Positions 9,595-36,551 of a stretch of DNA of 64,000 bases are shown here, piece after piece (positions within the stretch are counted from its first letter, which is position 1; each line of letters begins with the position of its first letter). The notes under the pieces were generated by a model. It saw nothing but the letters and a program-made list of their open reading frames with translations. It made no database searches and was not told the DNA's origin. This DNA comes from Alcaligenes aquatilis (GTDB taxonomy: Bacteria > Pseudomonadota > Gammaproteobacteria > Burkholderiales > Burkholderiaceae_B), in NCBI RefSeq assembly GCF_003076515.1, contig NZ_CP022390.1, forward strand, positions 2,920,472-2,984,471, given 5' to 3'. The position numbers and the translations under genes were made by a program.

Positions 9595-9713
9595 AAATGA
9601 ATCGCGGTCAGCACGTTAAAGGCTTCGGTCTACAAGCACAAACAGCCGGCCCGAAGCGGGCTGCTTTTAGTGTTAACAGACCCTAGCCAATGAACTATAC
9701 TTTCTTTCTATGT

Positions 9714-9732
9714 AAACGGTTATCATTCAGAC
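9714..9732. promoter_or_regulatory. Candidate Fur box upstream of the siderophore import operon
   Basis: AAACGGTTATCATTCAGAC contains the Fur-box half TTATCATT in an A/T-rich region 6 to 24 bp before the permease ATG at 9738 and within the divergent region shared with the esterase gene. The match to the 19-bp consensus is partial, so binding is plausible but not certain. Confidence 0.5.
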
Positions 9733-9737
9733 TCTTA

Positions 9738-10790: not shown

Positions 10791-10793
10791 ACC

Positions 10794-11579: not shown

Positions 11580-11593
11580 CCTTCGGAGAACCC

Positions 11594-12733: not shown

Positions 12734-13513
12734 ATGTCGCGCCTGATTCCACTAGAGCTGCCGCCTGCGGGCGGCCATCCCCATCACGTCTTGCTGCGCC
12801 TGCCGGACGGCAAGCCCGAACAAGGCCCTCTGCCTTTGCTGTGCCTGCTCGATGGTCAGTGGACCTTGCCCTTGCTGGAAGAAAGCGGTCACCCCGCCCT
12901 GGAACGCTGCGCCATTTTGTCGCTGGGCTATCAAGGCGAACGCGATCAGATCACCCGCTATCGCGCTCTGGATTACACCCCGCCCGGCCCGGACGGTGGT
13001 TTATGGGAAGACCCGCGCGTCCCTCAGTGGCAAGCCGGTGGCGCCCCAGCCATGATCGAACAAGTACGCATGGCGCTGGCATTGGCCCAAAGGGTAGAAC
13101 CCGCACTAACCCGTTCGCGTATCAGCCTGTACGGTCATTCCTACGCCGGCTTATTCGTGCTGTATGCCCTTAGCCAGCACAGCCTACCCATTCATCATTA
13201 CCTGTGCGCCAGCCCTTCTTTGTGGTGGCGCGATCCCCTGATCTGGACCTTGCTGGAGCAATTGGGCAAGCCGGTGCAGGTAGATATTCTGGCCGGTGCC
13301 TCCGAGGCCTGGTATCCGCTTAGCGCTCAGGCGGCAGGGCCGGACGGACGCAAAAATGGCGTGCCTACCCTGCCCACCATGCAAAAACTGCAAGCGCACC
13401 TGCAAGCCCAAGGCATGCAAGCCAAGTTGCATGTTCTGCCCGGAGCCGGTCACGGCCATGTGCTGGCACAAGCCACCCTGCGTGCGCTGGAACTGGCCTG
13501 CGGCGCGGCTTAG
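12734..13513 (+). CDS. Second IroE-like esterase, last gene of the siderophore import operon
   Basis: A 259-residue alpha/beta hydrolase with nucleophile elbow GHSYAG (Ser136), SPSLWWRD after it and a catalytic-type His in PGAGHGHVLA. This matches the IroE-like putative esterases but is only distantly like the one at 8839-9594, which has GHSLGG. No signal peptide, hence probably cytoplasmic. It begins six bases after the binding-protein stop, so it belongs to the import operon and probably hydrolyses imported ferric catechol siderophore. A short hairpin with T's follows. Confidence 0.78.
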   Translation: MSRLIPLELPPAGGHPHHVLLRLPDGKPEQGPLPLLCLLDGQWTLPLLEESGHPALERCAILSLGYQGERDQITRYRALDYTPPGPDGGLWEDPRVPQWQAGGAPAMIEQVRMALALAQRVEPALTRSRISLYGHSYAGLFVLYALSQHSLPIHHYLCASPSLWWRDPLIWTLLEQLGKPVQVDILAGASEAWYPLSAQAAGPDGRKNGVPTLPTMQKLQAHLQAQGMQAKLHVLPGAGHGHVLAQATLRALELACGAA

Positions 13514-19939: not shown

Positions 19940-19958
19940 AATGATAATGATTAACATT
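19940..19958. promoter_or_regulatory. Fur box upstream of the LIV-type/siderophore gene run
   Basis: AATGATAATGATTAACATT closely matches the Fur consensus GATAATGATAATCATTATC (tandem NATAAT-type hexamers). It lies 25 bp before the first gene of the LIV-type transporter. This is the clearest iron-control signal in the window and places the transporter, and probably the siderophore genes after it, under ferric uptake regulation. Confidence 0.85.
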
Positions 19959-19982
19959 TAGTAGTGCAGCCTCCTGCCTGAA

Positions 19983-21230
19983 ATGTCTACCCAGGCGAAC
20001 TTGGCTCTCTTACGGAAACAAGCTCTCGTGACTCTCTCCCCTACCCGTGCTGGACGTCGTCAGCTTTTGCTGGCCGCTGCGGCCAGCCCTTTGCTATTTG
20101 GCGTACCCCGCCTGCTTCGTGCCCAAGACGGTCCCCTGAAAATTGCCTTGCTGACATCCTTGTCCGGCCCCTTCGCCTCCTTGGGCGAGAGCATGCGCGC
20201 CGGTCTGGAGTTGATGCTGCAACAGTGCAATAACGAGATGGGCGGACGCAAGGTGCAGTTGCTGGTCGAGGACGACCACGGCAAACCGGACGAAGCCATC
20301 CGTAAAGTGCGCAAGCTGATCGAGCGCGACAAAATCGATGTGTTGGGCGGCGTTATCAGCGCCAATATCGCGCTGGCCATTCGTGACATCGTCCACGATG
20401 CGCAACTGCCTACCTTTATTTCCAATGCCGCTGCCAATGGCCTGGCCCGTGAAGCCGCCAGCCCCTACGTGTTCCGCCCCACCAAAACGAGCTGGATGCT
20501 GGGTCATACCGGCGCTTTGTGGACCTTCGAGCAGATCGAAAAATCCGGCGGTATCACGCTGGGTTCGGACTACACCGCAGGCCGCGAATACATTGAGGAC
20601 TTCGCCAACACCTATCAGGAACAAGGCGGCACACTGGGCGAGCGCATCTGGACTCCCTTGGGTACCCCCGACTTCGCGCCTATCCTGATGAATCTGGCCG
20701 CCAGCAACCCCAAGTTTGTCTACACCTTCCTGGCTGGTGCCGACGCCGTTCGTTTCCACCAGCAAATGCAGGATTACCAACTACACGGCAAGATCCAGAT
20801 CGTGGGCCCCGGTGCCTTGTTCGACCAGGAAGATGTGATCACTGCGGTGGGCGAGGCCGCATTGGGTGGCGTCAGTACCTTCCACCAGTCCCCCGGCGCT
20901 CCGGCTGCCCAGGACTTTGTGGCCGCCTACCAAGCCAGCCGTGGCCGTTTGCCCGGCGAGGCCAGCACCTCCGGTTACGTGACCGGCCAGGTCATCAAGG
21001 CCGGTCTGGATGCGGTTAAGGGCGATCTGTCCAACAAGGCCGCTTTCAAGCAAGCCCTGCTGGACAAGCCTATCGACACCGCCTTTGGCCCCATGGCGTT
21101 TGACCCGCGCAATAACCAGTCCATTCTGGATATTTACGTCAACCGGGTGGAAAAAGACGCGCAAGGTCGCCCCTTTAACACCGTGGTTCATACTTACCAG
21201 CGTATCCAGGACCCCGGCCCGCGTTCTTGA
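19983..21230 (+). CDS. LIV-type (HAAT) ABC substrate-binding protein with Tat signal
   Basis: The N-terminus has a twin-arginine signal (GRRQLLLAAAASPLLFG, Arg25-Arg26) with a likely cut after LLRA. The mature part is a type-1 periplasmic-binding protein of the branched-chain amino-acid family (LKIALLTSLSGPFASLGESM, VEDDHGKPDEAIRKVRKLI, IDVLGGVISANIALAI). Relatives bind Leu/Ile/Val, amides, urea or aromatic acids. It lies directly behind a strong Fur box and heads an unbroken run that leads into siderophore biosynthesis, which is unusual. Ligand candidates are the siderophore, a DHB-serine fragment or dihydroxybenzoate; this is inference. No strong ribosome site is seen before the ATG. Confidence 0.85.
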   Translation: MSTQANLALLRKQALVTLSPTRAGRRQLLLAAAASPLLFGVPRLLRAQDGPLKIALLTSLSGPFASLGESMRAGLELMLQQCNNEMGGRKVQLLVEDDHGKPDEAIRKVRKLIERDKIDVLGGVISANIALAIRDIVHDAQLPTFISNAAANGLAREAASPYVFRPTKTSWMLGHTGALWTFEQIEKSGGITLGSDYTAGREYIEDFANTYQEQGGTLGERIWTPLGTPDFAPILMNLAASNPKFVYTFLAGADAVRFHQQMQDYQLHGKIQIVGPGALFDQEDVITAVGEAALGGVSTFHQSPGAPAAQDFVAAYQASRGRLPGEASTSGYVTGQVIKAGLDAVKGDLSNKAAFKQALLDKPIDTAFGPMAFDPRNNQSILDIYVNRVEKDAQGRPFNTVVHTYQRIQDPGPRS

Positions 21231-22108
21231 GCCACACCTTGTCTTACTACCTGCTTCAAATCCTCAATGCCCTGTCCTTCTCGGCCCTGCTGATGTTGGC
21301 GGGGCTGGGGCTGTCTTTAGTGCTCAGCCTGATGAACTTCATCAACCTGACACACGGCTCTTTTTTCCTGCTGGGCGGCTACATCAGTGTCCAATGGCTG
21401 GCCTCTGGCGCGCCCTGGTGGCTGGCCTTTCCCGCCGCGTTTGTACTGTGTGGGCTGATGGGCTTGTTACTGGACCGCTTTCCCTTTCGCCAGTTCTATC
21501 AACGCACTCACCTGATGCAGGTGCTGCTGACCTACGGCCTGTCCGTGATTCTGGCCGATTTGATGCGCTGGGGTTTCAGCGCCGACACGCTCTCGCCCAT
21601 GCTGCCGCAAGTGCTGCGTGGCGGGGTGTGGATCATGGGCCTGCCTTTCCCCACCTATCGCCTGTTCCTGATCGTTACCGGCCTGACACTGGCTTTGTTG
21701 TTCTGGTTCCTACTGGATCGCACCCTGTGGGGTGCGGCCATTCGCGCTTGCGTACAAGACGCCCAGATTGTCGAGACCCTGGGCCTGAACTCGCGTCGCC
21801 TGTTTGCCATCGGCATGGCGCTGGCCGCCGGTCTGGCCGGTTTGGGTGGCGCCTTGGGCGCAGGCATGTTGTCGGTCTACCCCGGTCTGGATGAAGAAAT
21901 CCTCTTGCTGGCCTTGCTGGTGGTGGTCATTGGTGGCTTGAACTCAGTGCGCGGGACCTTGCTGTGCGCGCTGATTCTGGGTTTCGTCACCACTTTTGCC
22001 CGCGTCTGGGTCCCTGCTTTTGCCAATGCCGCTACCCTGGCCGTCATGCTGGGCCTTCTGCTTTGCTGGCCCAATGGCCTAAGCAAATCCGCTACGCGTC
22101 AGGTTTAA
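21227..22108 (+). CDS. LIV-type ABC permease (LivH-like)
   Basis: About eight hydrophobic helices, with LivH family features: LMLAGLGLSLVLSLMNFINLTHGSFFLLGGY near the N-terminus and GLNSRRLFAIGMALAAGLAGLGGALGA in pieces near residue 190. The frame starts with TTG at 21227 overlapping the preceding TGA (TTGA), which fits translational coupling. It forms the inner-membrane channel with the following LivM-like protein. Confidence 0.88.
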   Translation: MSHTLSYYLLQILNALSFSALLMLAGLGLSLVLSLMNFINLTHGSFFLLGGYISVQWLASGAPWWLAFPAAFVLCGLMGLLLDRFPFRQFYQRTHLMQVLLTYGLSVILADLMRWGFSADTLSPMLPQVLRGGVWIMGLPFPTYRLFLIVTGLTLALLFWFLLDRTLWGAAIRACVQDAQIVETLGLNSRRLFAIGMALAAGLAGLGGALGAGMLSVYPGLDEEILLLALLVVVIGGLNSVRGTLLCALILGFVTTFARVWVPAFANAATLAVMLGLLLCWPNGLSKSATRQV

Positions 22109-23047
22109 ATGAACAAGCTCAACACCTGCCTGCTACGCACTGGACTTTGGCCCGCTTTGGCCTGCCTGGTCTTGCTCAGCAGCTATTTCTGGGGCGACGC
22201 CTTCTTATGGCGCTTTGGCACCGAAGCCCTGCTGATCGGTTGCGCCGTCCTTAGCATCAACCTCTTGATTGGTTACGGTGGTCTGGTCTCTCTGGGCCAC
22301 GGTGCCGTCTTTGGCTTTGCCGCGTACGCCACTGCCGTCAGCAGTCAATACTGGGGCGCATCCTTGCCCTTGATGCTGCTGGTCGGCATTGCGGCAGGCA
22401 CCCTGCTGTCCATGTTGATGGCGCTGATCAGCTTGCGCAGTTCCGAGCTGTTTTTCATGGTGGCCACGTTGGTTGCCGGTCAGTTGATCTGGGAAGTGGC
22501 ATTTCGCTGGCGTGACGTCACCGGTGGTGCAGACGGCCTGCGCGGTTTCCCGCGTCTGAGCCTGGGCGAGTTGCCCCTGAGCGCCCCCTACACCCTGATG
22601 ATTCTGGCCCTGGTGCTGGCGGTGGTCTGCTGGTTGTTGCTGCGCTCCTTCAGCCGCGCCCCGATCGGGTTGGCCTTGACCGGCCTGCGCGACCAGCCCT
22701 TGCGCATGGCCGCCCTGGGTTATCAAGCATGGCGCATTCGCCTTTACACATTCATGATTGCGGGTGCGGTAGCGGGTGCGGCTGGCGGCCTGTATCCCTT
22801 TGCAAACCAGTACGTCAGCCCACAACAAGTGCATTGGAGTTTCTCGGCCACGCTCATCATCATGGGTGTGATCGGTGGCATACGCACCTGGCGCGGCGCA
22901 TTCATCGGCGCTACGTTTTATCTGTTTGCCCAGACCTACCTCAGCTCCTACACAGATCGTTGGCAGTTGCTGGTGGGGTTGATCTTTGTGCTGACGGTTC
23001 TGTTCATGCCCAACGGTCTGGCTGAGCGGCGCAAGAGGTCCTCATGA
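22109..23047 (+). CDS. LIV-type ABC permease (LivM-like)
   Basis: A 312-residue protein with about eight to nine helices and LivM signatures (SINLLIGYGGLVSLGHGAVFGFAAY, SLRSSELFFMVATL, RDQPLRMAALGY, and the EAA-like loop after it). It starts directly after the LivH-like stop and overlaps the next ATPase start by four bases. Partner of the LivH-like subunit. Confidence 0.9.
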   Translation: MNKLNTCLLRTGLWPALACLVLLSSYFWGDAFLWRFGTEALLIGCAVLSINLLIGYGGLVSLGHGAVFGFAAYATAVSSQYWGASLPLMLLVGIAAGTLLSMLMALISLRSSELFFMVATLVAGQLIWEVAFRWRDVTGGADGLRGFPRLSLGELPLSAPYTLMILALVLAVVCWLLLRSFSRAPIGLALTGLRDQPLRMAALGYQAWRIRLYTFMIAGAVAGAAGGLYPFANQYVSPQQVHWSFSATLIIMGVIGGIRTWRGAFIGATFYLFAQTYLSSYTDRWQLLVGLIFVLTVLFMPNGLAERRKRSS

Positions 23048-23802
23048 GCGTGTTACTAAGCACTCGCGAACTGGCCTTGCATGTGGGGGGCCTGGATATC
23101 CTGACAGATGTCAGCCTGGAGCTGCGTGCAGGCGAAACCCTGGGGCTGATTGGCCCCAATGGGGCAGGCAAAACCACGCTGTTCAATATCATCAGCGGTT
23201 TGGCCACGCCATCCAGCGGCCAGGTTTTGCTGGAAGGCAAGGACCTGCGCAGTCTGGGGCCTATTGAGCGCGCCAGGCAAGGTCTGGTGCGCAGCTTTCA
23301 GACCAGCCGCATTTTTCCCGAACTGAGCCTGCTGCAAAACCTGGCCCTGGCCGTGCGCATCAAAAAAGGCTGCGGCTATCACTGGTGGGGCCGCAAGTCT
23401 GCCCGCAGCGCCAGTCAACAGGCGGCCGAAGCATTGCTGGAGCACAGCGCCCTGGCCGGTAGCGGGCATTTGCTGGCACGCTCCCTGTCCTATGGCGAGC
23501 AACGCATTCTGGATTTGCTGATTGCCCTGGCGCAGCAACCCCGCGTACTCTTGCTGGACGAGCCAACGGCTGGCCTGTCCGAATCCGAATCCCGTGAAGT
23601 CATGGCGCTGGTCCATGCCATGCGCGGCCAATGCGCCGTGCTGCTGATCAGCCACGACATCGATATTGTTTTCCAGGAATGTGACCGGATCGCCGTGCTG
23701 TCGTCCGGCACCTTGCTGACCTGCGATACCCCGGACGCCGTGCGCCAGCACGCTGGCGCGCGCCAGGCCTATCTGGGTGAACTGGCTTTGGAGACCGCAT
23801 GA
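23044..23802 (+). CDS. LIV-type ABC ATP-binding protein (LivG-like)
   Basis: Walker A is GPNGAGKTT, with RSFQTSRIFPELSLLQNL, the typical LivG Q-loop. The signature is LSYGEQRILDLLIALAQQP and Walker B is LLLDEPTAGLS. The LSYGEQ signature is characteristic of the LivG branch. Start and stop overlap both neighbours by four bases, showing a tightly coupled operon. Confidence 0.92.
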   Translation: MSVLLSTRELALHVGGLDILTDVSLELRAGETLGLIGPNGAGKTTLFNIISGLATPSSGQVLLEGKDLRSLGPIERARQGLVRSFQTSRIFPELSLLQNLALAVRIKKGCGYHWWGRKSARSASQQAAEALLEHSALAGSGHLLARSLSYGEQRILDLLIALAQQPRVLLLDEPTAGLSESESREVMALVHAMRGQCAVLLISHDIDIVFQECDRIAVLSSGTLLTCDTPDAVRQHAGARQAYLGELALETA

Positions 23803-24515
23803 GCACAGCGCTGAACATCTCGGGCCTGCATGCACGCTACGATCGGGCCGACATTTTGCAAGAAATTTCGCTGAATATTCCCGTCGGACAAAGCGTGGCC
23901 CTGCTGGGCCGCAACGGTGCCGGAAAAACCAGTCTGCTGCACTGCCTGTTCAATATGGGCCCGCAATGGAGTGGGCAAATCCATGTGCACGGTCAAAACA
24001 TTACGGGTTGGCCTACCCACAAAATCGCCCTGCTAGGCATGGCGCTGGTGCCACAAGGCCGGGGCCGCTTTCCCACACTGACCGTGCAGGAAAGCCTGCG
24101 CCTGGCCGGGCTGGCCCGCCGTCCACGCTCGGATGATCGCTGGACGCTGAACAGCATTTATGAATCCATGCCGCGTCTGTACGAGCGCCGCCAGTCCTCC
24201 TGCTCCGCCTTGAGTGGTGGCGAACGGCAATTGCTGGCACTGGCCCGCGCCCTGCTGACACAGTCCTCCATTATTGTTCTGGACGAACCCAGCGAAGGCC
24301 TGGCCCCCATGACAATTCAGGACACCTTGCTGCCGCAGCTGCAAACGCTAAACGAGCAGGGCATTACCGTGCTGATTGCCGAACAGAATTTAAGCCTGGC
24401 TCTGCAATTGGCGGATCGAGCCTTGTTGCTGGGCAATGGTCAGTTGGTTTACGACGGCCCTGCCGAACAGTTGCGCCAGGACGCCGCCCTTTTGCAACGC
24501 CATTTGGGACTTTGA
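23799..24515 (+). CDS. LIV-type ABC ATP-binding protein (LivF-like)
   Basis: Walker A is GRNGAGKTS, the Q-loop is LVPQGRGRFPTLTVQESL, the signature is LSGGERQLLALARALL and Walker B is IIVLDEPSEGLAP. The GRNGAGK and VPQGR..F motifs are the LivF hallmarks. Together with the LivG-like subunit it powers the transporter. The siderophore phosphopantetheinyl transferase gene begins one base after its stop, so transporter and siderophore activation genes sit in one transcription unit. Confidence 0.92.
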   Translation: MSTALNISGLHARYDRADILQEISLNIPVGQSVALLGRNGAGKTSLLHCLFNMGPQWSGQIHVHGQNITGWPTHKIALLGMALVPQGRGRFPTLTVQESLRLAGLARRPRSDDRWTLNSIYESMPRLYERRQSSCSALSGGERQLLALARALLTQSSIIVLDEPSEGLAPMTIQDTLLPQLQTLNEQGITVLIAEQNLSLALQLADRALLLGNGQLVYDGPAEQLRQDAALLQRHLGL

Positions 24516-24516
24516 C

Positions 24517-25194
24517 ATGCTGGCTGTGTACAGCTTGTCGCTTCCCCTGCCTGCAGGTATGGAATCCTGGTTACGAAGCCAGATCCCGGACAGCACCCTG
24601 GCCGTGATTGCCCGCCGCAAGCGTCAGTCAGATCAGCACTTAAGCCTGCTGGCCCACGGTGCCCTGCGCCATTTTCTGGCGCCTTTGCTGGGGTGTACGC
24701 CACGCGCCGTCCCCATTACTACGCTGGAACATGGCAAGCCGGTGCTGGATCTGGACGATACCGATCTGCACTTTAGCCTGTCGCACAGCGGCGAGCGCGT
24801 GCTGATTGGCATGGCCGACCGAATCATCGGCGTGGACATAGAAGCCATGCGCCTGCCCGTCAAACCAGGGTTGGTCGAACATTGCAGTGTGCCGTCCGAA
24901 CGCAGTTGGTTAAAATGTGATCTGGATTTTTATGCGCTGTGGTGTGGAAAGGAAGCAGCCCTGAAACAGGCGGGCACCGGTTTTCATATTCAGCCTCAAG
25001 AGTTATCCTTGAACGGCCATCCGGATTACGGATGCACCGTACAATCCCCCCATCCCATCTTGCAAGATTTGGTGGTGCACAGTCACCGGCCAGTAGAAAA
25101 CTATGCCGCTGCGATCTGCCTGAACACCCCTTTTGCTCCGTGGACGGTCAGCTTGCTGGACAGTGTTGAACTGCCTGACACCAAGCTGACTTAG
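24517..25194 (+). CDS. 4'-phosphopantetheinyl transferase, Sfp/EntD type
   Basis: This enzyme attaches the phosphopantetheine arm of CoA to the serine of carrier domains, here the aryl carrier protein and the NRPS. The Sfp-type motifs are visible: HFSLSHSG, GVDIE (Mg-binding Asp/Glu) and FYALWCGKEAALKQ (the W..KEA..K motif). The ATG at 24517 (MLAVYS) directly follows the LivF-like stop; an ATG at 24436 would lie inside that gene. Length 225 fits. Its place between the LIV-type genes and the DHB ligase ties the two parts together. Confidence 0.88.
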   Translation: MLAVYSLSLPLPAGMESWLRSQIPDSTLAVIARRKRQSDQHLSLLAHGALRHFLAPLLGCTPRAVPITTLEHGKPVLDLDDTDLHFSLSHSGERVLIGMADRIIGVDIEAMRLPVKPGLVEHCSVPSERSWLKCDLDFYALWCGKEAALKQAGTGFHIQPQELSLNGHPDYGCTVQSPHPILQDLVVHSHRPVENYAAAICLNTPFAPWTVSLLDSVELPDTKLT

Positions 25195-25225
25195 CACGAG
25201 TAAATCTGACAAGCCTACTTATTTA

Positions 25226-25244
25226 TGTAATAGTTCTCATTACC
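25226..25244. promoter_or_regulatory. Candidate second Fur box before the DHB ligase gene
   Basis: TGTAATAGTTCTCATTACC has Fur-like TAATA and TCATTA halves and abuts the ATG of the DHB-AMP ligase at 25245. If functional, it gives the biosynthetic genes their own iron-controlled promoter. The match is weaker than the box at 19940. Confidence 0.45.
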
Positions 25245-26891
25245 ATGATGAAATCTATTCCTGTTGAACAAATTTGGCCTGACGCCTTTGCCCAGCGATA
25301 CCGCGATGCTGGACACTGGCAAGGGGAAACGTTTGGCGCTTTGCTGCGCGCGCGCGCACAAAACCACCCGGAACGTGAAGCCCTTGTTGGCGGCACCCAA
25401 CGCTGGACCTATGGCGCGCTGGATCAGTACGCCAGCCAAATCGCAGCGGGCCTGCTGCAAGCTGGTCTGCGCAAGGGTGATCGGGTTCTGGTCCACCTGC
25501 CCAACATCCCTGAATTTGTCAGCGTGATCTTTGGCCTGTTCCGTGCTGGTCTCCTGCCCGTGTACGCCCTGCCAGCGCACCGCATTACCGAAGTCGAACA
25601 TTTTGCCAATACCGCCCAGGCACGCGCCTATATCGGTGTCGATACGCATGCCGGCTTTGACTATCTGCCTTTGGTGCGCGAGCTGCGTGAACGCTGTCCG
25701 CATGTAGAACAGGTTTACATCGTGGGCGATGCACAAGAGTTCACCTCCCTGGCCCTGTTGCAAAGCAGCGCCGCCGACGTAGACGTGCCCGTATCGGCAG
25801 CCCAGCCTTCTGACGTGGCTTTCCTACAAATTTCAGGTGGCAGCACAGGCTTGTCCAAGCTGATTCCCCGCACGCACGACGACTACATCTACACCTTGCG
25901 TGAAAGCGCCAAGATTGCCGGTCTGAACGAAAACAGCGTGTTCCTGGGCGCCTTGCCCATTGCCCACAACTTCCCCATGAGTTCACCCGGTTTTCTGGGT
26001 GCGCTGTACGCCGGTGCCAAAGTGGTGCTCAGTCCCGCCCCCAGCCCGGACGTTTGCTTTGAGCTGATCGAGCGCGAAGGCGTGACCGACACCAGCCTGG
26101 TCCCCCCACTGCTGATGCTGTGGATGGATGCGGCCACCAAGACCCATGCCAATCTGGAGTCGCTGCAAGTGATCCAGGTCGGCGGAGCCAAGCTGAACGC
26201 CGAAGCCGCCAAGCGCGTGCGCCCCACGCTGGGTGTGACCTTGCAGCAGGTGTTTGGCATGGCCGAAGGCCTGGTGAACTACACCCGCCTGGACGACCCC
26301 GAGGACATCATCATCAACACCCAGGGCCGCCCTATCAGCCCGGACGATGAAATCCTGATCGTGGACGACAACGGCAACCCGGTCGCCCCTGGCGAAACCG
26401 GCTACCTGCTGACACGTGGCCCTTACACAATCCGCGCGTATCACAACAACCCGTCGGCCAATGCCCGCTCCTTTACCGAGGACGGTTTTTACCGCACAGG
26501 CGACGTGGTACGCATGACGCCCGAAGGCTATTTGATGGTTCAGGGCCGTGCCACTGACCACATCAACCGCGCTGGCGAAAAAATCTCCGCCGAGGAAATT
26601 GAAGATCATCTGCTGGCCCACCCGCAGGTCTTTGACGCTGCCGTGGTATCGGTGCCAGACGAGTTTCTGGGCGAGCGCAGCTGCGCTTTCATCATCCCCA
26701 AGGATGACAAGCCGCGCGCGATTGAACTGAAGAAATGGATACGCAGCCGTGGTCTGGCCGACTTCAAAGTACCGGACCAAATCGTGTTTGTAGACCGTTT
26801 CATGGAAACGGCGGCCTTGAAGATCAGCCGCAAAGAACTGCGCGCCCAGTTGCGCGAGCAATTAGAAAACACAACGCAAGAATCATCATGA
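25245..26891 (+). CDS. entE: 2,3-dihydroxybenzoate-AMP ligase (EntE/DhbE-like)
   Basis: This adenylating enzyme activates 2,3-dihydroxybenzoate and loads it on the aryl carrier protein. It has the AMP-binding core motifs FLQISGGSTGLSKLIPRTH, FGMAEGLVNYT, FYRTGDVVR and the catalytic Lys region LKISRKELR. The substrate pocket segment AHNFPMSSPG matches DHB enzymes (a Ser where salicylate enzymes have Cys in LACPG). The start is ATG at 25245 or the next codon ATG at 25248; no ribosome site precedes either, and the candidate Fur box touches the start. Its stop overlaps the carrier protein start (ATGA). Confidence 0.93.
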   Translation: MMKSIPVEQIWPDAFAQRYRDAGHWQGETFGALLRARAQNHPEREALVGGTQRWTYGALDQYASQIAAGLLQAGLRKGDRVLVHLPNIPEFVSVIFGLFRAGLLPVYALPAHRITEVEHFANTAQARAYIGVDTHAGFDYLPLVRELRERCPHVEQVYIVGDAQEFTSLALLQSSAADVDVPVSAAQPSDVAFLQISGGSTGLSKLIPRTHDDYIYTLRESAKIAGLNENSVFLGALPIAHNFPMSSPGFLGALYAGAKVVLSPAPSPDVCFELIEREGVTDTSLVPPLLMLWMDAATKTHANLESLQVIQVGGAKLNAEAAKRVRPTLGVTLQQVFGMAEGLVNYTRLDDPEDIIINTQGRPISPDDEILIVDDNGNPVAPGETGYLLTRGPYTIRAYHNNPSANARSFTEDGFYRTGDVVRMTPEGYLMVQGRATDHINRAGEKISAEEIEDHLLAHPQVFDAAVVSVPDEFLGERSCAFIIPKDDKPRAIELKKWIRSRGLADFKVPDQIVFVDRFMETAALKISRKELRAQLREQLENTTQESS

Positions 26892-27133
26892 GTACTCCCC
26901 TTACCCTGGAACGCATGCGGCAAGACATTGCCGCCATGCTGCATGAAGACCCGCAAGACATTCTGGACGATGACAACCTGATCGATCTGGGCCTGGACTC
27001 CATGCGCGTCATGACCCTGGCCACCCGCTGGCGCGAGGCCGGCGCTCCTATCGAGTTTTCCGAAATGGCCTCGGTTGTCACCCTGGGCCAATGGTGGTCG
27101 CTGATCGAGCGTGCCCAACAAAACGGCCGCTGA
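26888..27133 (+). CDS. Free-standing aryl carrier protein (ArCP)
   Basis: An 81-residue four-helix carrier protein with the phosphopantetheine site LGLDSMRVM (Ser39). It carries the DHB unit from the ligase to the condensation domain. In the E. coli-type EntB and the Bacillus DhbB this domain is fused to isochorismatase; here it stands alone and is coupled to entE, while the isochorismatase is about 8 kb downstream. Confidence 0.9.
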   Translation: MSTPLTLERMRQDIAAMLHEDPQDILDDDNLIDLGLDSMRVMTLATRWREAGAPIEFSEMASVVTLGQWWSLIERAQQNGR

Positions 27134-27154
27134 TTTTCTTACTGCAACACGCTT

Positions 27155-30100: not shown

Positions 30101-31078
30101 TTCGCCCTGGGCGGACATTCGCTGCTGGCTGCCAAACTGGCCTTGCTGCTGCGCGAAGCACGCGGTCAGGCCGTCTCGATTGGCACTATTTTTGAGTACC
30201 CCACCATTGCCCGTCTGGCCAAGCATCTGGATCAGGCAGGCAGCACGACTGCCGATGGTTTTGGCCCCATCATCACCTTGCGTCCGGCACAAAGCGACCA
30301 GCCTGCGCTGTTCGTGATTCACCCGGCTGGTGGCTTGTCCTGGTGCTATGGGGCACTGGCTCGTCATCTACCCCCTGGCCGTGCCGTCTACGGCCTGCAA
30401 GCCAGTTTGCTGTCTGACGCCTCGCTGGGTCTGGATGGCAGCCTGGATGCCATGGCCAAGGTGTATGTGGATCGTATCGAGCACGTTCAGCCACAGGGCC
30501 CCTACCATCTGGCCGGCTGGTCGGTGGGCGGCATTATTGCTCAGGCCATGGCGGTCGAGCTGCGTCGTCGCGGTCAATTAGTCGGCATGTTGTCCTTGCT
30601 GGACGCCTATCCCAGCGACGCCTGGCGTAACGAACCACCTCCCGAGCCCAACGCTATCTACAAGGCCCTGCTGCATATTGCAGGCCATGACCCGGACAGC
30701 TTGCCCGACGTTTCCCTGACCCGTCAGGGTGTGGTGGACTTCCTCAAGCGCAGTGCTCACCCGCTGGCCGAATTGCCCGACACGCGTCTGGACCGCGTGT
30801 TCCAGGTGGTCGAGAACAATAACCGTCTGGTACGTCTGTACGAGCATCACACCTATGACGGCCCCATGCTGTATTTCCGCGCCGCTCTGGATCACGCAGG
30901 CACACAATTGCATCCCGATTTGTGGCAACCCTATGCAGGGCAGCTGGACGTGCACGATATTGCCTCCCTACACGCGCATTTGACCGGTACTGAAGCCGTG
31001 GCCATCATGGCCCCGCTGATGGACTCGGCCATGGCTTTTGCCGAACAGGCACAAGCCCAACCTGAACTCGATGTATAA
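27155..31078 (+). CDS. entF: Enterobactin synthetase F-like NRPS (C-A-T-TE), serine specific
   Basis: The 1,307-residue protein has the order and length of EntF (about 1,290). The condensation domain (about 10-430) has HHLAADGYG near residue 140. The adenylation domain (about 460-880) has YLIYTSGSTGTPKG near 600. The carrier domain has FFALGGHSLLAAKL near 985 and the thioesterase has GWSVGG near 1125. The A-domain pocket reads DVSVWEFF, HFVPSML, FCSGE and LYGPTEAAVDVS, which gives the Stachelhaus code DVWHFSLVDK, as in E. coli EntF for L-serine. Expected reaction: joining DHB to serine and release as a DHB-Ser oligomer, probably the cyclic trimer. A very long antisense frame over it is a codon-bias shadow. 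Confidence 0.93.
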   Translation: MFSSPSELPLRPLTEAQEGLWYAQRLDPLNPIFNTGHCTHIHSALDTALFAQAINLTLTEADALTLRMVDTPDGPAQYLRPQEPIQLEVVDLSAHADGAEQAQTQLMADLRTPLDPTIAPLARHILFVLGPKHHLWYQRIHHLAADGYGMALIETRVVKLYKALLNGHEDHGHELESFALLQDDDQSYRESERRSKDRQFWLDTLSDAEPAQSLSESQALSDHHFLLARRAVKPELTASLQALAQSSDISWPDILTGLTAAYVRRHTRQDECTVGVPWMGRLGHISARIVSTVMNVAPLRLQIDETQPLNQYLIQVSKALRQARRHGRYRSEQLRRDLGLLGGMRRLHGPIINVLPFDAPYEQAGLTASQTVLCAGPVEDLNFTFRAQPDASGLRLEVEANPRLYTDEQIQTHLVRLEQFLLRALQAETLSAVPTLTDAEHHHWIETVNQTAHPVPETTLWALIHAQLQAHPEQCGLEFEGKKLSYAQIDEQTANLAAQLRLAGVQTGDIVAVALPRSLELVLSLLAIHRAGAAYLPLDLDQPADRLNTILQAAQPRLLVGQPGCTLNASLLVPQPEQTCSAPDWAAAGPHDPSYLIYTSGSTGTPKGVLVNHDAIVNRLVWMQTHYGIGAGDRILQKTPATFDVSVWEFFLPFLSGATLVVAPPQAHRDPAHIARLMREQSITVLHFVPSMLSAFLDEPEARGLAPRLVFCSGEELSAATRDRFHSLLNAELHNLYGPTEAAVDVSYWPASREDQSQPVPIGFPVWNTALYILDEQLQPVPPGVAGHLYLAGRQLAQGYWGRPDLTEERFVPDPYALHGDRMYATGDVARWRDDGAVIFLGRSDHQIKLRGQRIELGEIEALLARHPDVAHVAVIAREDVPGQMAIVAYWVPQAGSQCTDNTLAAYVGEHLPSYMVPSAWISLDTLPVTANGKLDRKALPVPALQARSAGLPLEGATQHQIAAAFATVLESSDAFYADDDFFALGGHSLLAAKLALLLREARGQAVSIGTIFEYPTIARLAKHLDQAGSTTADGFGPIITLRPAQSDQPALFVIHPAGGLSWCYGALARHLPPGRAVYGLQASLLSDASLGLDGSLDAMAKVYVDRIEHVQPQGPYHLAGWSVGGIIAQAMAVELRRRGQLVGMLSLLDAYPSDAWRNEPPPEPNAIYKALLHIAGHDPDSLPDVSLTRQGVVDFLKRSAHPLAELPDTRLDRVFQVVENNNRLVRLYEHHTYDGPMLYFRAALDHAGTQLHPDLWQPYAGQLDVHDIASLHAHLTGTEAVAIMAPLMDSAMAFAEQAQAQPELDV

Positions 31079-31081
31079 GCC

Positions 31082-32332
31082 ATGTCTGTAAGACGTTTCT
31101 TTCTGGATATCTCACCACTGATCGAAAGCCGGGCATTCCGTTTTGCCTACTTCGCTCGGGCCGCGACTGTACTGGTTACCGGCATGTTGATGGTGGCTGC
31201 CAGCGTACAGCTCTATGAGCTGACCAAATCCAGTGTGGCCGTTGCTTTCCTGAACGTATCCATGGCCACCCCCATGGTGCTGGCACTGATTGCCGGCGGT
31301 GTCTTGTCGGACCGCATGGACAGGCGCAGCCTGATGGTCTGGTCGCGCAGTGTCTATATCCTCAGCGTGGTGCTGTTCCTGCTCAATACGCTGCTGCCCA
31401 ACCCGCAGGTCTGGTTGATCTATGTGGCCGCTGCCATTGGTGGTGCGGCAGGCGGGATCAGCGTCCCGGCCATGATGTCGGCCACCCCTGCCCTGGTCGG
31501 TCGAGACAAGCTGGCCGCTGCGGCTGCCCTGTCCGGTTTGGCCATGCAGTTGGGCGGCATTATCGGCCCCGCACTGGCAGGCGTACTGATCTCCGGCCCT
31601 GGCCTGATTTTCTGCTACGTGATCGTGCTGTGCGGTGTCATCGTCACCCCTTTGCTCTTGCGCGCTCTGCCGCCCTTGCCTCCGCAAGCGGGCAAGCAGC
31701 CCCAGAAAAACGCCTTCCAATCCCTGCGCGATGGCCTTGCCTTTGTAGCCAGCCACCCTTTGCTGCGCGCCCTATTGCTGATTGATCTGGCCGCCCTGAT
31801 TTTGGCCACGCCCTTGGCCTTGATGCCCGAGTGGGGCGACACCATTCTGAACATGGGCGCTACCGCCACCGGCTATCTCTACGCCGCCCCGGCGGTAGGT
31901 GCCACGCTGGCTGCCCTGTCCAGTGGCTGGTGCCGCCAAGTGTCCCGTCCCGGTGCCGCCATTGTGCTTGCCGTACTGATCTGGGGTCTGGCTGTTGCCG
32001 CCCTGTCCCTGCAAACCACCTTATGGTGGGCACTGATCTGCCTGGCCATCATGGGCGCAGCCGACACCATCTCCAAAATCATGCGTATGGCGCTGGTTCA
32101 GCACCACACCCCCGATTACCTGCTGGGCCGTGTTTCCAGCCTGTGGATGACGCAATACTCCCTGGGCCAGGCCCTGGGCAATATGCAAATGGGCTATCTG
32201 TCCCGCCTGCTTGGCCCTGCAGTCGCTGTGGCCGTAGGCGGTCTGGCTTGCGCTGCGGTCGCAGGTGGTTTCGGCGTGTTCAATCAAGGTCTGCGTTCAG
32301 CCCGCAAACAGGATGGCCCACCCCATGCCTGA
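31082..32332 (+). CDS. entS: EntS-like MFS siderophore exporter
   Basis: A 416-residue major facilitator with about 12 helices and EntS-type features: FFLDISPLIESRAFRFAYFARA at the N-terminus, then motif A (GGVLSDRMDRRSLMVWSR). Helix 4 has AAAIGGAAGGISVPAMMSA and a late motif is GRVSSLWMTQYSLGQALGN. EntS exports enterobactin across the inner membrane. It begins three bases after the NRPS stop, which supports this role. Confidence 0.88.
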   Translation: MSVRRFFLDISPLIESRAFRFAYFARAATVLVTGMLMVAASVQLYELTKSSVAVAFLNVSMATPMVLALIAGGVLSDRMDRRSLMVWSRSVYILSVVLFLLNTLLPNPQVWLIYVAAAIGGAAGGISVPAMMSATPALVGRDKLAAAAALSGLAMQLGGIIGPALAGVLISGPGLIFCYVIVLCGVIVTPLLLRALPPLPPQAGKQPQKNAFQSLRDGLAFVASHPLLRALLLIDLAALILATPLALMPEWGDTILNMGATATGYLYAAPAVGATLAALSSGWCRQVSRPGAAIVLAVLIWGLAVAALSLQTTLWWALICLAIMGAADTISKIMRMALVQHHTPDYLLGRVSSLWMTQYSLGQALGNMQMGYLSRLLGPAVAVAVGGLACAAVAGGFGVFNQGLRSARKQDGPPHA

Positions 32333-32429
32333 CATCTCGATTTTGTTCTACCCACGCCTGCTACACGCCTGTAGAAAGAGCTCCTACATGGACCGTCTTG
32401 TCGACCGAACTTTTATTTAGGATTAAAAG

Positions 32430-33827
32430 ATGCTAATCAATGTCAATTGCATTCGTCGTACCCCCGCTGCCCTGCTACGCAAGGCCGGCCTGAGCGCAGC
32501 CGTCCTGTCCTTGTCCCTGGCCAATGCCTTTGCCGCTCCCGCCTTCGACCAGCCTGATGCTGACTTCCGTGGCTCCATGAATGCCGCTGGCGTGGTCTAT
32601 GCAGGCAGCGAAGCCCAACTGGCAGGCCGTGGTTTTACGCCCGGCCAGGAAGTGATCCTGCTGCAAAACGGCCACACCCTGACCCCTGCCGCCCTGGTCG
32701 CCGATAAAGACGGCAATCTGAGCACCACCCTTGCCATTCCAGCCGAAGCCGCCGTTGGAGTGCACCCAGTGGTCATGCAGGTCAGCAAGCCATCGACCGC
32801 TGGCATCTTCAACCTGAAGGTTTCCCCTAAAGTTGAGCTGAGCGGCCAGGACAAATTTGAACTGCAATCCCAGCACCTGGTGCCCGGCTTGTACCAAAGC
32901 GCCTACAGCCCCAAGAACAACGTGCTGTTCGTGACTTCCGCCGTGGGCCGTCCCCCCGTCAAGCAATCGCAATTGGTCAAAGTGAACCCCAAGACCCTGG
33001 TCGTTGAAGCCAGCGTGACACCTGCCGCCCAAAAAGGCCGTGACGATGGTCAGGTTCAAGCCGTGTACGGTGTGGACGTGGACGACAAGCAAGGCAATGT
33101 CTGGGTCACCAACACCCGCAGCAGCTCCATCGCTGTGTACAGCCAGAAAGACCTGAAACTGGTCAAACAGTTTGAAGACGGCGTCGTCAGCCACCCACGT
33201 GATGTGGTTGTGGACGAAAAGACCAACCGTGCTTACGTGTCCTCGCCCGGCGCTGACACTCTGGCCGTGTTCGACACCAAAAAGCTGACTCAGTTGGACC
33301 CGATCGAACTGCAATCGAAAACCCGCAACAAGCCCGGCAGCATGAGCCTGATCCTGGACGCTGAAAAAGACCGTCTGTACACCGTCAGCGCCAGCACCAA
33401 CGAGCTGATCATTGTTGACCTGAAAAACGGCAATGCGCAAACCGTATTCCCCGTACCCGGCGCACGTGGTCTGGCTGGTGTGTCGGTAGACAGCAAGAAT
33501 GACCAGGTCTACGTAGCCGCCCAAGGCAGCGACAACCTGCTGATCATCAACGCCAAAGACGGTGCCGTTCAGCACGACATCAAGATTGGCGCTGGCGCCT
33601 TGAACGTAGTCTTTGATCCCAAGACATCCCTGGCTTACGTGGCCTCCCGCGGTGCGGGCACTGTGACGGCCGTGAACGGCAAAGGTGAAATCGTTGCCAA
33701 CCTGGACGGTGGCAGCTTCCCCAACCACGTTTCCCTGGATGGCGAAGGCAATGCCTATCTGGTCAACAAATCCAAAGGTAAGGATGACCAGACCGCTGAC
33801 CGTATCACGCGTATTCACCTGAAGTAA
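32430..33827 (+). CDS. Exported YncE-like beta-propeller with N-terminal Ig-like domain
   Basis: Residues 1-36 form a signal peptide (LSAAVLSLSLANAFAAP). Residues about 45-130 look like an Ig-like beta-sandwich (YAGSEAQLAGRGFTPGQEV). From about 140 on there are repeated YVTN-type blades (VYGVDVDDKQGNVWVTNTRS, DVVVDEKTNRAYVSSPGADT, VSVDSKNDQVYVAAQGSDN, VVFDPKTSLAYVASRGAGT) of a YncE-like propeller. E. coli YncE is an iron-repressed periplasmic propeller of unclear role. This one sits inside the siderophore gene run, between exporter and isochorismate synthase. Its start codon lies in an A/T-rich imperfect inverted repeat (32430-32453) that is weakly Fur-like. A periplasmic siderophore-handling role is inference. 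Confidence 0.8.
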   Translation: MLINVNCIRRTPAALLRKAGLSAAVLSLSLANAFAAPAFDQPDADFRGSMNAAGVVYAGSEAQLAGRGFTPGQEVILLQNGHTLTPAALVADKDGNLSTTLAIPAEAAVGVHPVVMQVSKPSTAGIFNLKVSPKVELSGQDKFELQSQHLVPGLYQSAYSPKNNVLFVTSAVGRPPVKQSQLVKVNPKTLVVEASVTPAAQKGRDDGQVQAVYGVDVDDKQGNVWVTNTRSSSIAVYSQKDLKLVKQFEDGVVSHPRDVVVDEKTNRAYVSSPGADTLAVFDTKKLTQLDPIELQSKTRNKPGSMSLILDAEKDRLYTVSASTNELIIVDLKNGNAQTVFPVPGARGLAGVSVDSKNDQVYVAAQGSDNLLIINAKDGAVQHDIKIGAGALNVVFDPKTSLAYVASRGAGTVTAVNGKGEIVANLDGGSFPNHVSLDGEGNAYLVNKSKGKDDQTADRITRIHLK

Positions 33828-33837
33828 GCCGCCCAAC

Positions 33838-33862
33838 GCGCCCCTTTCATAAAAAGGGGCGC
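33838..33862. terminator. GC hairpin between propeller and isochorismate synthase genes
   Basis: GCGCCCCTTT pairs perfectly with AAAGGGGCGC over a 5-nt loop, eleven bases after the propeller stop. No long T run follows, so it may act as an mRNA-stabilising or partial stop structure rather than a full terminator. Confidence 0.4.
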
Positions 33863-33896
33863 AAAGGCAAAACCCTTGCCCTTAAAAAGGACTCCT

Positions 33897-35102
33897 ATGA
33901 ACAGCCGTATAGCCGACCAAGTCCGCCCCGCCACCATTGAAGAATGGTTAAGGCATTACCGGGCCGACAGCAGCGTATTTGCCTCTCCCACCGTCAGTTT
34001 GATGGCACACGGCACGGCACTGGAGCGGCATACCCATAATGCCCAAGGACAATTGCTGGCAGATGCCCAGACCTTGCTGTCACAAGCCGCACAACAAGGT
34101 CTGGACGCCCCCCTGCTACTGGGTGTGATTCCCTTTAACCCGGCCCGCGAAGCCTATTTGCGCGTGCCCAAGGAATACCGACGCGATCCCGTCTTGCTGC
34201 GCCCGGTCCAGCGACCACCGCTGGCCAAATCCGGTAACAGCATTGCCAGCCAAAGTCTGCTGCCCAACGGTGCGGGCTACGAAGACAGCGTCAGCCGCAT
34301 CCTGGCAACGATGCGCGAACAGGACATTTCCAAAACCGTGATGGCCCGTACCGTGACCATCACGCTGAACGAAGCCCTGGATCGTCAGACTGTGTTGAGC
34401 AATATGCTCCACAGCAATCCGGCTGGCTATACCTATGCCCTCCCCCTGCCGGGCGGCAAGACTCAAGACCCGGATCTATTTTTTGGAGCCAGCCCCGAGC
34501 TGCTGGTGCGTCGCCAGGGCGATCTGGTTACCGTCAACCCGCTGGCAGGCACTGCCCCCCGCTTTGCCGACCCACAGCGCGACCAGGCCAGCGCAGAAAC
34601 CTTGATGGCGTCCAGCAAAGACCTGCGTGAACATGCCTACGTGATCCAGGATGTAGTACGCATCCTGTCCCAGTTCTGCGACGGCCTGGACGTGCCCGAC
34701 GGCCCCAGCCTGACCAGCACCGCCAACCTGTGGCACCTGTCCACGCGTATCAGTGGCCGTTTGCGCGACCCATCCGTCACCTCTCTGGAACTGGCATTGG
34801 CCATGCACCCCACACCGGCCGTGTGCGGTTTGCCCACCCAGCCCGCCATGCAGGCCATCGAAGCCACCGAAGTCTTTGATCGTGGCTACTTTGCGGGTGC
34901 CATAGGCTGGAACGATCACGAAGGCAACGGCGAATGGGCCGTGGCCATCCGCTGCGGCCACTACACCCGGCAAAATCTGACCTTATCGGCTGGCGCTGGC
35001 ATTGTGGACGGCTCCGTCCCTGCCCTGGAGCGTCAGGAAACCGGCAATAAACTCATGACCCTGATCAACTCCCTGGGTCTGGCACAAGACATCACTCTTT
35101 AA
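33897..35102 (+). CDS. entC: Isochorismate synthase (EntC/DhbC-like)
   Basis: Converts chorismate to isochorismate, the first step to 2,3-dihydroxybenzoate. The C-terminal chorismate-binding domain shows FFGASPELLVRRQGDLVTVNPLAGT, SSKDLREHAYVIQDVVRIL, LWHLSTRISG and AMHPTPAVCGLPTQPA; the last is the isochorismate-synthase active-site region with the conserved HPTPAV. The ATG at 33897 follows AAGGACTCCT; an ATG 21 bases earlier is in frame but lies before the ribosome site. Length (401) is normal. Confidence 0.93.
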   Translation: MNSRIADQVRPATIEEWLRHYRADSSVFASPTVSLMAHGTALERHTHNAQGQLLADAQTLLSQAAQQGLDAPLLLGVIPFNPAREAYLRVPKEYRRDPVLLRPVQRPPLAKSGNSIASQSLLPNGAGYEDSVSRILATMREQDISKTVMARTVTITLNEALDRQTVLSNMLHSNPAGYTYALPLPGGKTQDPDLFFGASPELLVRRQGDLVTVNPLAGTAPRFADPQRDQASAETLMASSKDLREHAYVIQDVVRILSQFCDGLDVPDGPSLTSTANLWHLSTRISGRLRDPSVTSLELALAMHPTPAVCGLPTQPAMQAIEATEVFDRGYFAGAIGWNDHEGNGEWAVAIRCGHYTRQNLTLSAGAGIVDGSVPALERQETGNKLMTLINSLGLAQDITL

Positions 35103-35116
35103 CGGAGACACGATTC

Positions 35117-35755
35117 ATGACGATTCACGCCTTGCCCAGCTACGAGCTGCCTCAAACCCCCGTAGCCAACCGCGTCAATTGGCGGCCTCAGGCCAATCGT
35201 GCCGCCCTGCTCATTCACGATATGCAGACCTACTTTCTGCAGAAATACGATATGAGCCAGGCTCCGATCCCCATGTTGATCGAACGCATCGCGGCCCTGC
35301 GCGAGGTCTGCCACACGCTGGGCATTCCCGTGTTCTACACCGCCCAGCCTACCGAGCAGCCCGAGAAAGACCGTGCCTTGCTGAACGATTTCTGGGGTCC
35401 AGGCCTGACCGCCACCGAATTTCACACCCAGCAAGCCGTCGTGCCCGAGCTGACACCGGCCGAGCAGGACATCATGCTGACCAAATGGCGCTACAGCGCC
35501 TTCCAGCGCTCCAACCTGCGTGAGCAACTGCGCAATCTGGGCCGCGACCAGCTGATCATCACCGGCGTTTACGCCCACATCGGCTGCATGACCACTGCCT
35601 TGGAAGCCTTCATGCAAGACGTACAACCCTTCCTGGCCATTGACGGCGTTGCCGACTTCTCGCTGCAAGAACACCACATGGCCATCCGCCACGTCTCGCA
35701 ACGCTGCGGCGTCAGCCTGACCTGCGCCGAAATCCAGGACAGCCTGCAACGCTAA
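35117..35755 (+). CDS. entB: Free-standing isochorismatase (EntB N-terminal domain equivalent)
   Basis: Hydrolyses isochorismate to 2,3-dihydro-2,3-dihydroxybenzoate and pyruvate. Cysteine-hydrolase-family features are LLIHDMQTYF (Asp), MLTKWRYSAFQ (Lys) and ITGVYAHIGCMTTALEAFM, almost the same as E. coli EntB. The protein stops at 212 residues, after the isochorismatase domain, and lacks the carrier domain of EntB; that is supplied by the separate ArCP gene at 26888-27133. Fourteen bases after isochorismate synthase, so same operon. Confidence 0.92.
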   Translation: MTIHALPSYELPQTPVANRVNWRPQANRAALLIHDMQTYFLQKYDMSQAPIPMLIERIAALREVCHTLGIPVFYTAQPTEQPEKDRALLNDFWGPGLTATEFHTQQAVVPELTPAEQDIMLTKWRYSAFQRSNLREQLRNLGRDQLIITGVYAHIGCMTTALEAFMQDVQPFLAIDGVADFSLQEHHMAIRHVSQRCGVSLTCAEIQDSLQR

Positions 35756-35768
35756 ACAGAGAGTACAC

Positions 35769-36551
35769 ATGAGCACACAAGAATTTGCAGGTGAATGCGT
35801 TGCCGTCACGGGCGCGGCCCGTGGCATCGGCGCCTCTGTGACCAAACTGCTGCTGGAGCGAGGCGCCAGCGTCATCGCCCTGGACCTGGACGTAGAAGGT
35901 CTGACCCAACTGAGCCAATCCGAATACAGTGATCGGGTTTCCTGCCACCTGGTCGACATCAGCCAGGCCGATGCCGTTGATGCAGCGCTGGCCCAAGGCC
36001 AGGAAAAACTGGGCCCCATCCAGCGCCTGGCCTGTGTCGCGGGCGTCCTGCAAATGGGCCGCATCACCGAACTGAGTAACGAGCAATGGGACCGCACTTT
36101 CGCCATCAACACCACCGGCGTCTTTAACGTCTGTCGCAACGTGGCCAAAGGCATGATAGAGCGCAAACAAGGCGCCATCGTCAACGTCAGCTCTAACTCC
36201 GCCGCCACTCCCCGCATCGCCATGGGCGCCTATGCCGCCTCCAAAGCTGCCGTCACCCAACTGAGCCGCTGCCTGGGCCTGGAACTGGCCCCACACGGTA
36301 TCCGGGTGAACATCATCTCCCCCGGCTCCACCGACACCCCCATGCAACAAGCCTTGTGGGCGCAAGGTAGCTCGCGCGAAACTGTCATCGCAGGCTCCGG
36401 CGAGAACTACCGTCTGGGCATCCCCCTGCAGAAAATTGCCACTCCCGAAGAAATTGCTGAAGCCGTGCTGTTCCTGCTCTCGGACCGCGCCAGCCACATC
36501 ACCCTATCTGACTTGCGGGTAGACGGCGGTGCCACACTGGACCAAGGCTAA
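35769..36551 (+). CDS. entA: 2,3-dihydro-2,3-dihydroxybenzoate dehydrogenase (EntA-like SDR)
   Basis: A classical short-chain dehydrogenase: cofactor motif VTGAARGIGASV, NAD-type Asp after beta-2 (ALDLDV), CVAGVLQMGR, and catalytic Ser (VNVSSNSAATPRI) with YAASK (Tyr and Lys). The end SHITLSDLRVDGGATL matches EntA closely. It oxidises 2,3-dihydro-DHB to 2,3-dihydroxybenzoate, completing the aryl branch. It is the last gene of the run and is followed by a strong terminator. Confidence 0.93.
   Translation: MSTQEFAGECVAVTGAARGIGASVTKLLLERGASVIALDLDVEGLTQLSQSEYSDRVSCHLVDISQADAVDAALAQGQEKLGPIQRLACVAGVLQMGRITELSNEQWDRTFAINTTGVFNVCRNVAKGMIERKQGAIVNVSSNSAATPRIAMGAYAASKAAVTQLSRCLGLELAPHGIRVNIISPGSTDTPMQQALWAQGSSRETVIAGSGENYRLGIPLQKIATPEEIAEAVLFLLSDRASHITLSDLRVDGGATLDQG

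What the first reader, a model, noticed from the sequence alone, without database searches (positions are those of the whole stretch)
19940..36551. A branched-chain amino-acid-type ABC transporter is built into a Fur-controlled catechol siderophore locus
A strong Fur box (19940-19958) is followed by a complete LIV-type transporter (binding protein, two permeases, two ATPases). Overlaps of 1-4 bases link it to the siderophore phosphopantetheinyl transferase and then the DHB/serine NRPS genes. Known siderophore importers are FecBCD-type, and one of those is present separately at 9.7-12.7 kb. LIV-type binding proteins in soil bacteria also bind aromatic acids, so this system may recover DHB or DHB-serine released by the three esterases, or take up a ferric siderophore by a new route.
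Basis: partly seen in the sequence, partly recalled or inferred. Interest (0 to 1): 0.8.

Follow-up and report, generated by a model that had tools for sequence, protein, structure and literature searches.

The report
DHB re-uptake transporter in siderophore locus
Inside an iron-regulated enterobactin-type siderophore locus of an Alcaligenes bacterium sits a complete ABC importer that probably takes up 2,3-dihydroxybenzoate, the siderophore's building block, so the cell may recapture or scavenge the part instead of only making it.

Summary
In detail: a five-gene LIV-type ABC importer (20028-24515) with a strong Fur box directly precedes a siderophore PPTase and enterobactin-type genes. The link is conserved: 17 of 18 Alcaligenaceae relatives with an orthologous binding protein have it beside entE/entF, and all 18 carry an orthologous EntE. 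Eighteen relatives have EntE but no LIV; 17 of those loci join fec/esterase genes straight to PPTase/entE, one is cut by a contig end. The ligand is probably free 2,3-dihydroxybenzoate (DHB). Nearest structures of known ligand bind hydroxybenzoates; LivJ's amino-group ligands are lost. DHB is the compound common to both settings. Best reading: a Fur-controlled DHB (re)uptake system feeding EntE. Against: LIV-bearing genomes make DHB, and the EntB-less ones lack LIV. No binding or expression was measured.

The parts
19942..19956 (+). Fur box (7-1-7, 13/14), overlapping a sigma-70-like -10 (TTTACA 19918, 16, AATGAT to 19945)
   Evidence: promoter-like matches in the region are at chance level; 13/14 in 8 of 18 relatives, 10-12/14 in 4, 9/14 or less in 6
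20028..21230 (+).
   Evidence: Pfam PF13458 236 bits; structural neighbours; RR at least 90% conserved in A1
21227..22108 (+). LivH-type permease
   Evidence: PF02653
22109..23047 (+). LivM-type permease
   Evidence: PF02653
23044..23802 (+). LivG-type ATPase
   Evidence: PF00005
23799..24515 (+). LivF-type ATPase
   Evidence: PF00005
24517..25194 (+). 4'-phosphopantetheinyl transferase
   Evidence: PF01648
25195..25244 (+). 50-base gap with a weak Fur-like site (9/14) and a sigma-70-like match: possible second promoter for the ent genes
   Evidence: neither is above chance here by itself
25245..26891 (+). EntE, DHB-AMP ligase
   Evidence: relatives so named
26888..27133 (+). stand-alone aryl carrier protein
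   Evidence: PF00550 36 bits
27155..31078 (+). EntF-type NRPS (C-A-PCP-TE), serine code residues as in E. coli EntF
31082..32332 (+). EntS-type exporter
   Evidence: NF007792 345 bits, over cut-off 324
32430..33827 (+). YncE-like beta-propeller protein
   Evidence: below cut-off
33876..35102 (+). EntC/DhbC isochorismate synthase
   Evidence: TIGR00543 over cut-off
35117..35755 (+). EntB isochorismatase domain only
35769..36551 (+). EntA-type dehydrogenase
9690..12727 (+). FecCD-type permease, ATPase, Peripla_BP_2: the likely ferric-siderophore importer
12734..13513 (+). putative esterase (est2); its homologue directly precedes livBP in 9 of 18 relatives
8839..9594 (-). esterase-type hydrolase (est1)
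37405..38982 (-). Fes-type enterochelin esterase
   Evidence: PF11806 + PF00756

Best explanation
The five genes encode an ABC importer for 2,3-dihydroxybenzoate (DHB), recruited into the enterobactin locus between the fec/esterase block and the PPTase. Under iron starvation Fur releases the promoter at 19942-19956; the Tat-exported binding protein captures free DHB in the periplasm (lost overflow of EntCBA, or DHB made by neighbours), LivHMGF imports it, and EntE, encoded just downstream, re-activates it onto the stand-alone ArCP for enterobactin assembly. Shown: gene content, conserved placement, Fur site, purifying selection, structural kinship to hydroxybenzoate binders, and the same subfamily in front of DHB-cleavage genes in another lineage. 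Inferred: the ligand, the benefit, Tat export and Fur control.
Against: No binding, transport or expression data. LIV-bearing genomes make DHB themselves: EntB in 13 of 13 tested, EntC in 12 of 13. The two tested genomes without EntB (G004, G192) lack LIV, so no genome was found that depends on import. Half of the 36 enterobactin-type relatives do without LIV. In Paenalcaligenes (G138) LIV sits about 1.1 Mb from the ent locus. Six of 18 relatives have no clear Fur site before livBP. The catabolic setting was read directly in one genome; four more rest on contig length; the dioxygenase name also covers dihydroxy-p-cumate, and no substrate was tested. Pocket mapping is by alignment, without ligand modelling.
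Confidence: 0.7

Rival explanations
1. LIV imports DHB-serine (monomer or dimer) left by periplasmic or extracellular cleavage of enterobactin, recycling both carbon and building block.
For: Three esterase-type genes flank the locus; est2 directly precedes livBP in 9 of 18 relatives.
Against: LIV is absent from loci that keep est2 (15 of 18 LIV-less loci). The G1479 operon has DHB-cleavage-type enzymes and no peptidase or amidase among the ORFs scanned. Closest structures of known ligand bind single-ring acids.
Confidence: 0.12
2. LIV is a new route for a ferric catechol complex (ferric enterobactin, its linear forms or Fe-DHB).
For: Fur box and siderophore linkage.
Against: A FecCD-type importer gene is seen in the window, in 8 of the 9 LIV-bearing relatives whose stretch reaches est2 upstream of livBP (L044 shows only fecB; in the other 8 plus L045 it was not covered or not found) and in 16 of 18 LIV-less loci, the other 2 being cut by contig ends. 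Fold and pocket kin bind small acids; the subfamily is linked to DHB cleavage elsewhere.
Confidence: 0.05
3. LIV imports other aromatic acids (salicylate, benzoate, protocatechuate, plant phenolics) as carbon source or signal; its place in the locus reflects shared iron control only.
For: Related proteins bind several benzoate derivatives (PMC3223731 passages).
Against: Strict nesting of LIV within EntE-bearing genomes and the DHB-type catabolic setting.
Confidence: 0.08
4. An ordinary amino-acid importer (serine or branched-chain) supplying EntF or general metabolism.
For: Family annotation (LIV); EntF uses serine by its code residues.
Against: NCBIfam Liv and urea-transporter models all below cut-off; both alpha-ammonium ligands of LivJ replaced.
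Confidence: 0.05

Closest known systems
R. palustris benzoate-derivative LIV binding proteins (RPA0668/HbaE, 4ey3/4eyg, 4evs, 4f06)
   Same: Same fold and transporter class; nearest solved relatives with a ligand named; Gly in place of LivJ Glu226 (GPG) in 4evq and 4ey3 by the alignments.
   Different: Only 23-27% identical. RPA0668 lies between benzoate and 4-hydroxybenzoate degradation operons (passages); I know of no siderophore link for any of them (recalled).
E. coli LivJ-LivHMGF
   Same: Same five-subunit architecture.
   Different: Below NCBIfam cut-offs; amino-acid ligand residues lost.
E. coli enterobactin locus (entCEBA, entF, entD, fepBCDG, fes, entS; recalled)
   Same: Enzymes, exporter, esterase, FecCD-type importer, serine code.
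   Different: Separate ArCP instead of EntB's domain; LIV importer added, with no E. coli counterpart known to me (recalled).
2,3-DHB meta-cleavage pathways (opa of Pseudomonas PTH10, dhb of P. reinekei MT1)
   Same: Extradiol dioxygenase, class II aldolase (dhbB) and semialdehyde dehydrogenase types also lie beside the LIV subfamily in G1479.
   Different: The opa cluster carries TRAP-type transporter genes, and the passages seen name no LIV genes (PMC6362003).

Membership tests
LIV/HAAT-type ABC importer | Peripla_BP_6 protein, two BPD_transp_2 permeases, two ABC ATPases in one run | tested here: met
Branched-chain amino acid importer (LivJHMGF equivalogs) | NCBIfam model scores over cut-off | tested here: not met
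   54 v. 477 bits for the binding protein; the four other subunits also below
Branched-chain amino acid importer (LivJHMGF equivalogs) | Glu226 and Tyr202 for the alpha-ammonium group (residue roles recalled) | tested here: not met
   Gly in 37 of 38, Ala/Pro in 38 of 38 subfamily members
Aromatic-acid LIV binding proteins | Closest fold and sequence relatives of known ligand bind benzoate derivatives | tested here: met
Aromatic-acid LIV binding proteins | Measured binding of an aromatic acid | not testable with these tools
   needs protein
FecBCD-type siderophore importer | FecCD permease and Peripla_BP_2 protein | tested here: not met
   LIV genes match other families; such an importer is at 9690-12727
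Enterobactin synthase locus | EntE, EntF with C-A-PCP-TE and Ser code DVWHFSLVD | tested here: met
   (nine of ten code residues read from the EntF alignment; positions recalled)
Enterobactin synthase locus | EntB with fused aryl carrier domain | tested here: not met
   EntB 212 aa, isochorismatase only; ArCP separate
Fur regulon | Fur box at the promoter | tested here: met
Fur regulon | Iron-dependent transcription | not testable with these tools
   no expression data

The most novel reading that the evidence does not exclude
A transporter subfamily dedicated to 2,3-DHB exists that bacteria use in two opposite ways: to eat DHB (alphaproteobacterial meta-cleavage operons) and, under Fur control in Alcaligenaceae, to recapture or pirate DHB from outside for enterobactin assembly, so that siderophore building blocks are a contested public good.
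Probability: 0.5. Interest if true: 0.8.

Novelty: new variant of a known kind. Interest (0 to 1): 0.68.

Why it matters
Siderophore biology treats import as import of the ferric complex. A Fur-controlled ABC importer for the bare aryl precursor would add a salvage or piracy step to catechol siderophore economy, explain what happens to DHB lost by producers, and give a ligand to a LIV subfamily now annotated only as branched-chain amino acid transport. It is directly testable with one purified protein and one deletion.

Tried and rejected
Binding-protein orthologues outside the family: 1 of 398 genomes of the phylum and 1 of 399 of the order, in both cases the window's own; 0 of 385 alphaproteobacteria with P0063 (where nothing rang, so the empty answer proves little); 1 of 309 in one order of that class. 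Plasmids held two records at E 1e-60, both Thermus, about 37% identical.

Prediction that some LIV-bearing genomes lack DHB synthesis: not borne out (31 of the 37 EntE-bearing genomes, own included, were given: 13 with LIV, 18 without; the own genome and 5 further Alcaligenes were left out). EntB was found in 29 of 31, an EntC orthologue (E below 1e-60) in 27 of 31.

Decay of LIV where the ent genes are lost: G138 looked like this, but its ent locus exists elsewhere and also shows broken frames, so sequence errors are likelier; rejected.

One origin of LIV on the EntE tree: the label needs 5 changes, 4 forced by supported branches, so gain plus losses or several gains; undecided.

An independent Fur promoter for entE: considered; in LIV-bearing loci the site is weak (10/14 or more in 4 of 17), in LIV-less ones strong (16 of 18); left open.

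A 1725-base contig-length match between LIV and dioxygenase lists was set aside as too short to hold both. Those lists are 99 LIV hits, the best 120 of 3417 dioxygenase hits and the best 120 of 4990 EntE hits.

Papers: PMC3223731, PMC7643998, PMC6362003, PMC6461280 and PMC10530903 were seen as found passages (some including the abstract), not in full. In the titles and abstract openings listed by the nine answered paper searches (several list only the top of a longer result) I saw no LIV transporter in a siderophore locus and no DHB ABC importer; most subscription papers are not held.
Full report
What is there. Gene content was confirmed with Pfam and NCBIfam. The order is fecCD-fecE-fecB-est2, an octopine-dehydrogenase/NMT1-type transporter module with a MarR gene, then Fur box, livBP-H-M-G-F, PPTase, entE, ArCP, entF, entS, yncE-like, entC, entB, entA, with fes on the other strand.

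Fur box. TGATAATGATTAACA (19942-19956) differs from the 7-1-7 consensus at one position. With up to 3 mismatches the window has 3 matches against 0.79 expected (4 of 100 shuffles reach 3), so the strength of this one match, not the count, is the point: genome-wide only three places reach 0-1 mismatch. In relatives the best site before livBP scores 13/14 in 8, 12/14 in 1, 11/14 in 1, 10/14 in 2 and 9/14 or less in 6 of 18; random 200-base windows of the fetched loci, which include these sites, reach 10 or more in 59 of 1140. Before entE, 20 of 36 loci reach 10/14 or more: 16 of 18 without LIV, 4 of 17 with LIV beside it, and not the G138 locus. Where LIV is inserted, then, the strong Fur site tends to be at liv; whether entE keeps its own promoter in the window is open.

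Conservation. Of 200 genomes of the family (own genome included) 19 have an orthologous binding protein, in 8 of 43 genera. In 17 of the 18 relatives the five liv genes are followed by PPTase/entE/entF (in L042 and L044 no PPTase match, but entE); in 9 of them est2 directly precedes livBP, so the NMT1-type module, seen in the other 8, looks like a later insert within Alcaligenes. EntE orthologues (66% identity or more, including fragments in G029 and G138) occur in 36 relatives: 18 with LIV, 18 without; no sampled genome has LIV without EntE. In the 18 loci without LIV, 15 show est2 and 2 show fecB directly before PPTase or entE, and 1 is cut by a contig end. On the EntE tree LIV needs 5 changes. 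dN/dS against L034 and L035 is 0.03-0.18 for the liv genes, 0.06 for entE, 0.07-0.13 for entF and 0.17-0.29 for the PPTase; against L036 synonymous sites are saturated.

Ligand from a second context. The subfamily is sharply bounded: of 99 hits at E 1e-60, 96 are 52% identical or more and the other 3 are 36-38% (only the 7997 candidates sharing most words were scored). It includes alphaproteobacteria. In G1479 (contig of 7,354,671 bases, the length given for Phreatobacter stygius P0051) livF overlaps by 4 bases the first of two VOC/extradiol proteins; a class II aldolase and an MFS gene follow, with a divergent FCD-GntR regulator, an SDR and a dehydrogenase. The dehydrogenase is a 2-hydroxymuconic semialdehyde dehydrogenase over cut-off; the aldolase's best model is 3,4-dihydroxyphthalate decarboxylase, far below cut-off; both VOC proteins match extradiol models below cut-off. 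For the second VOC protein every JGI name among the 120 relatives listed (of 3417) reads 2,3-dihydroxy-p-cumate/2,3-dihydroxybenzoate 3,4-dioxygenase; NCBI names say only VOC or extradiol dioxygenase family protein. PMC6362003 (abstract, passages) gives these enzyme types as DHB meta-cleavage steps, the aldolase type being that of P. reinekei MT1. The window's ent proteins found no entE or entF match in the 36 kb read there, the only ent match being an SDR to entA; no ring-hydroxylating oxygenase was seen among the ORFs scanned, some of which were spurious frames; the upstream 300 bases show no Fur box by eye. Exact contig lengths over 5 kb link LIV with this dioxygenase in 4 clusters and with EntE in 8 others; the dioxygenase and EntE lists share none; unequal pairs within 20 bases number 2 and 1. 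The EntE-linked members are 65-77% identical to the window's protein, among them a Comamonadaceae strain, and the three of them put on the tree fall in the window's clade; the dioxygenase-linked ones are 57-60% identical and were not on the tree.

Synthesis. DHB is the compound shared by an enterobactin assembly line and a DHB-cleavage operon. The simplest model is a DHB importer whose cargo is burned in one lineage and re-used by EntE in another. The supply is more likely leaked or foreign DHB than esterase product, because enterobactin esterases leave the DHB-serine amide (recalled). Against it stand the lack of any measured binding, the fact that LIV-bearing genomes make DHB, and that the two EntB-less genomes lack LIV.

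Known or new. Aromatic-acid LIV transporters and enterobactin loci are known; Alcaligenes ent genes are in print (PMC7643998, PMC10530903, passages), and the passages seen do not link them to LIV (the first counts nine liv clusters separately). The combination, its Fur site and the DHB assignment were not seen in the listings of the nine paper searches made.

Noticed in passing
window 13636-19775: An octopine-dehydrogenase/3HCDH/NMT1-type ABC transporter module with a MarR gene sits between est2 and the Fur box; in 9 relatives est2 joins livBP directly, so it looks inserted within Alcaligenes.
   Followed up: partly
window 26888-27133: Stand-alone aryl carrier protein overlapping entE by 4 bases, while EntB lacks its carrier domain.
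   Followed up: yes
L045 (G138) 3973-8436: A LIV operon with a Fur-like site about 1.1 Mb from the ent locus in Paenalcaligenes; livBP and livH frames are broken, as are several ent genes, probably sequence errors.
   Followed up: partly
L096 (G004), L095 (G192): Loci with entE/entF in genomes where no EntB and no EntC orthologue was found: possible users of foreign DHB, yet without LIV.
   Followed up: partly
window 25195-25244; The Fur-like site before entE is strong in 16 of 18 LIV-less loci but in only 4 of 17 with LIV, as if the Fur site had moved to the liv promoter.
   Followed up: partly
window 32430-33827: YncE-like beta-propeller protein with an extra N-terminal part, kept in the siderophore loci of relatives; role unknown.
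   Followed up: no
window 39092-40681: Methyl-accepting chemotaxis protein with a Cache domain next to the Fes-type esterase.
   Followed up: no
L127 4000-4240: Palindromic TAATTTCGAAATTA-type repeats before the Phreatobacter LIV operon, possibly the GntR operator.
   Followed up: no
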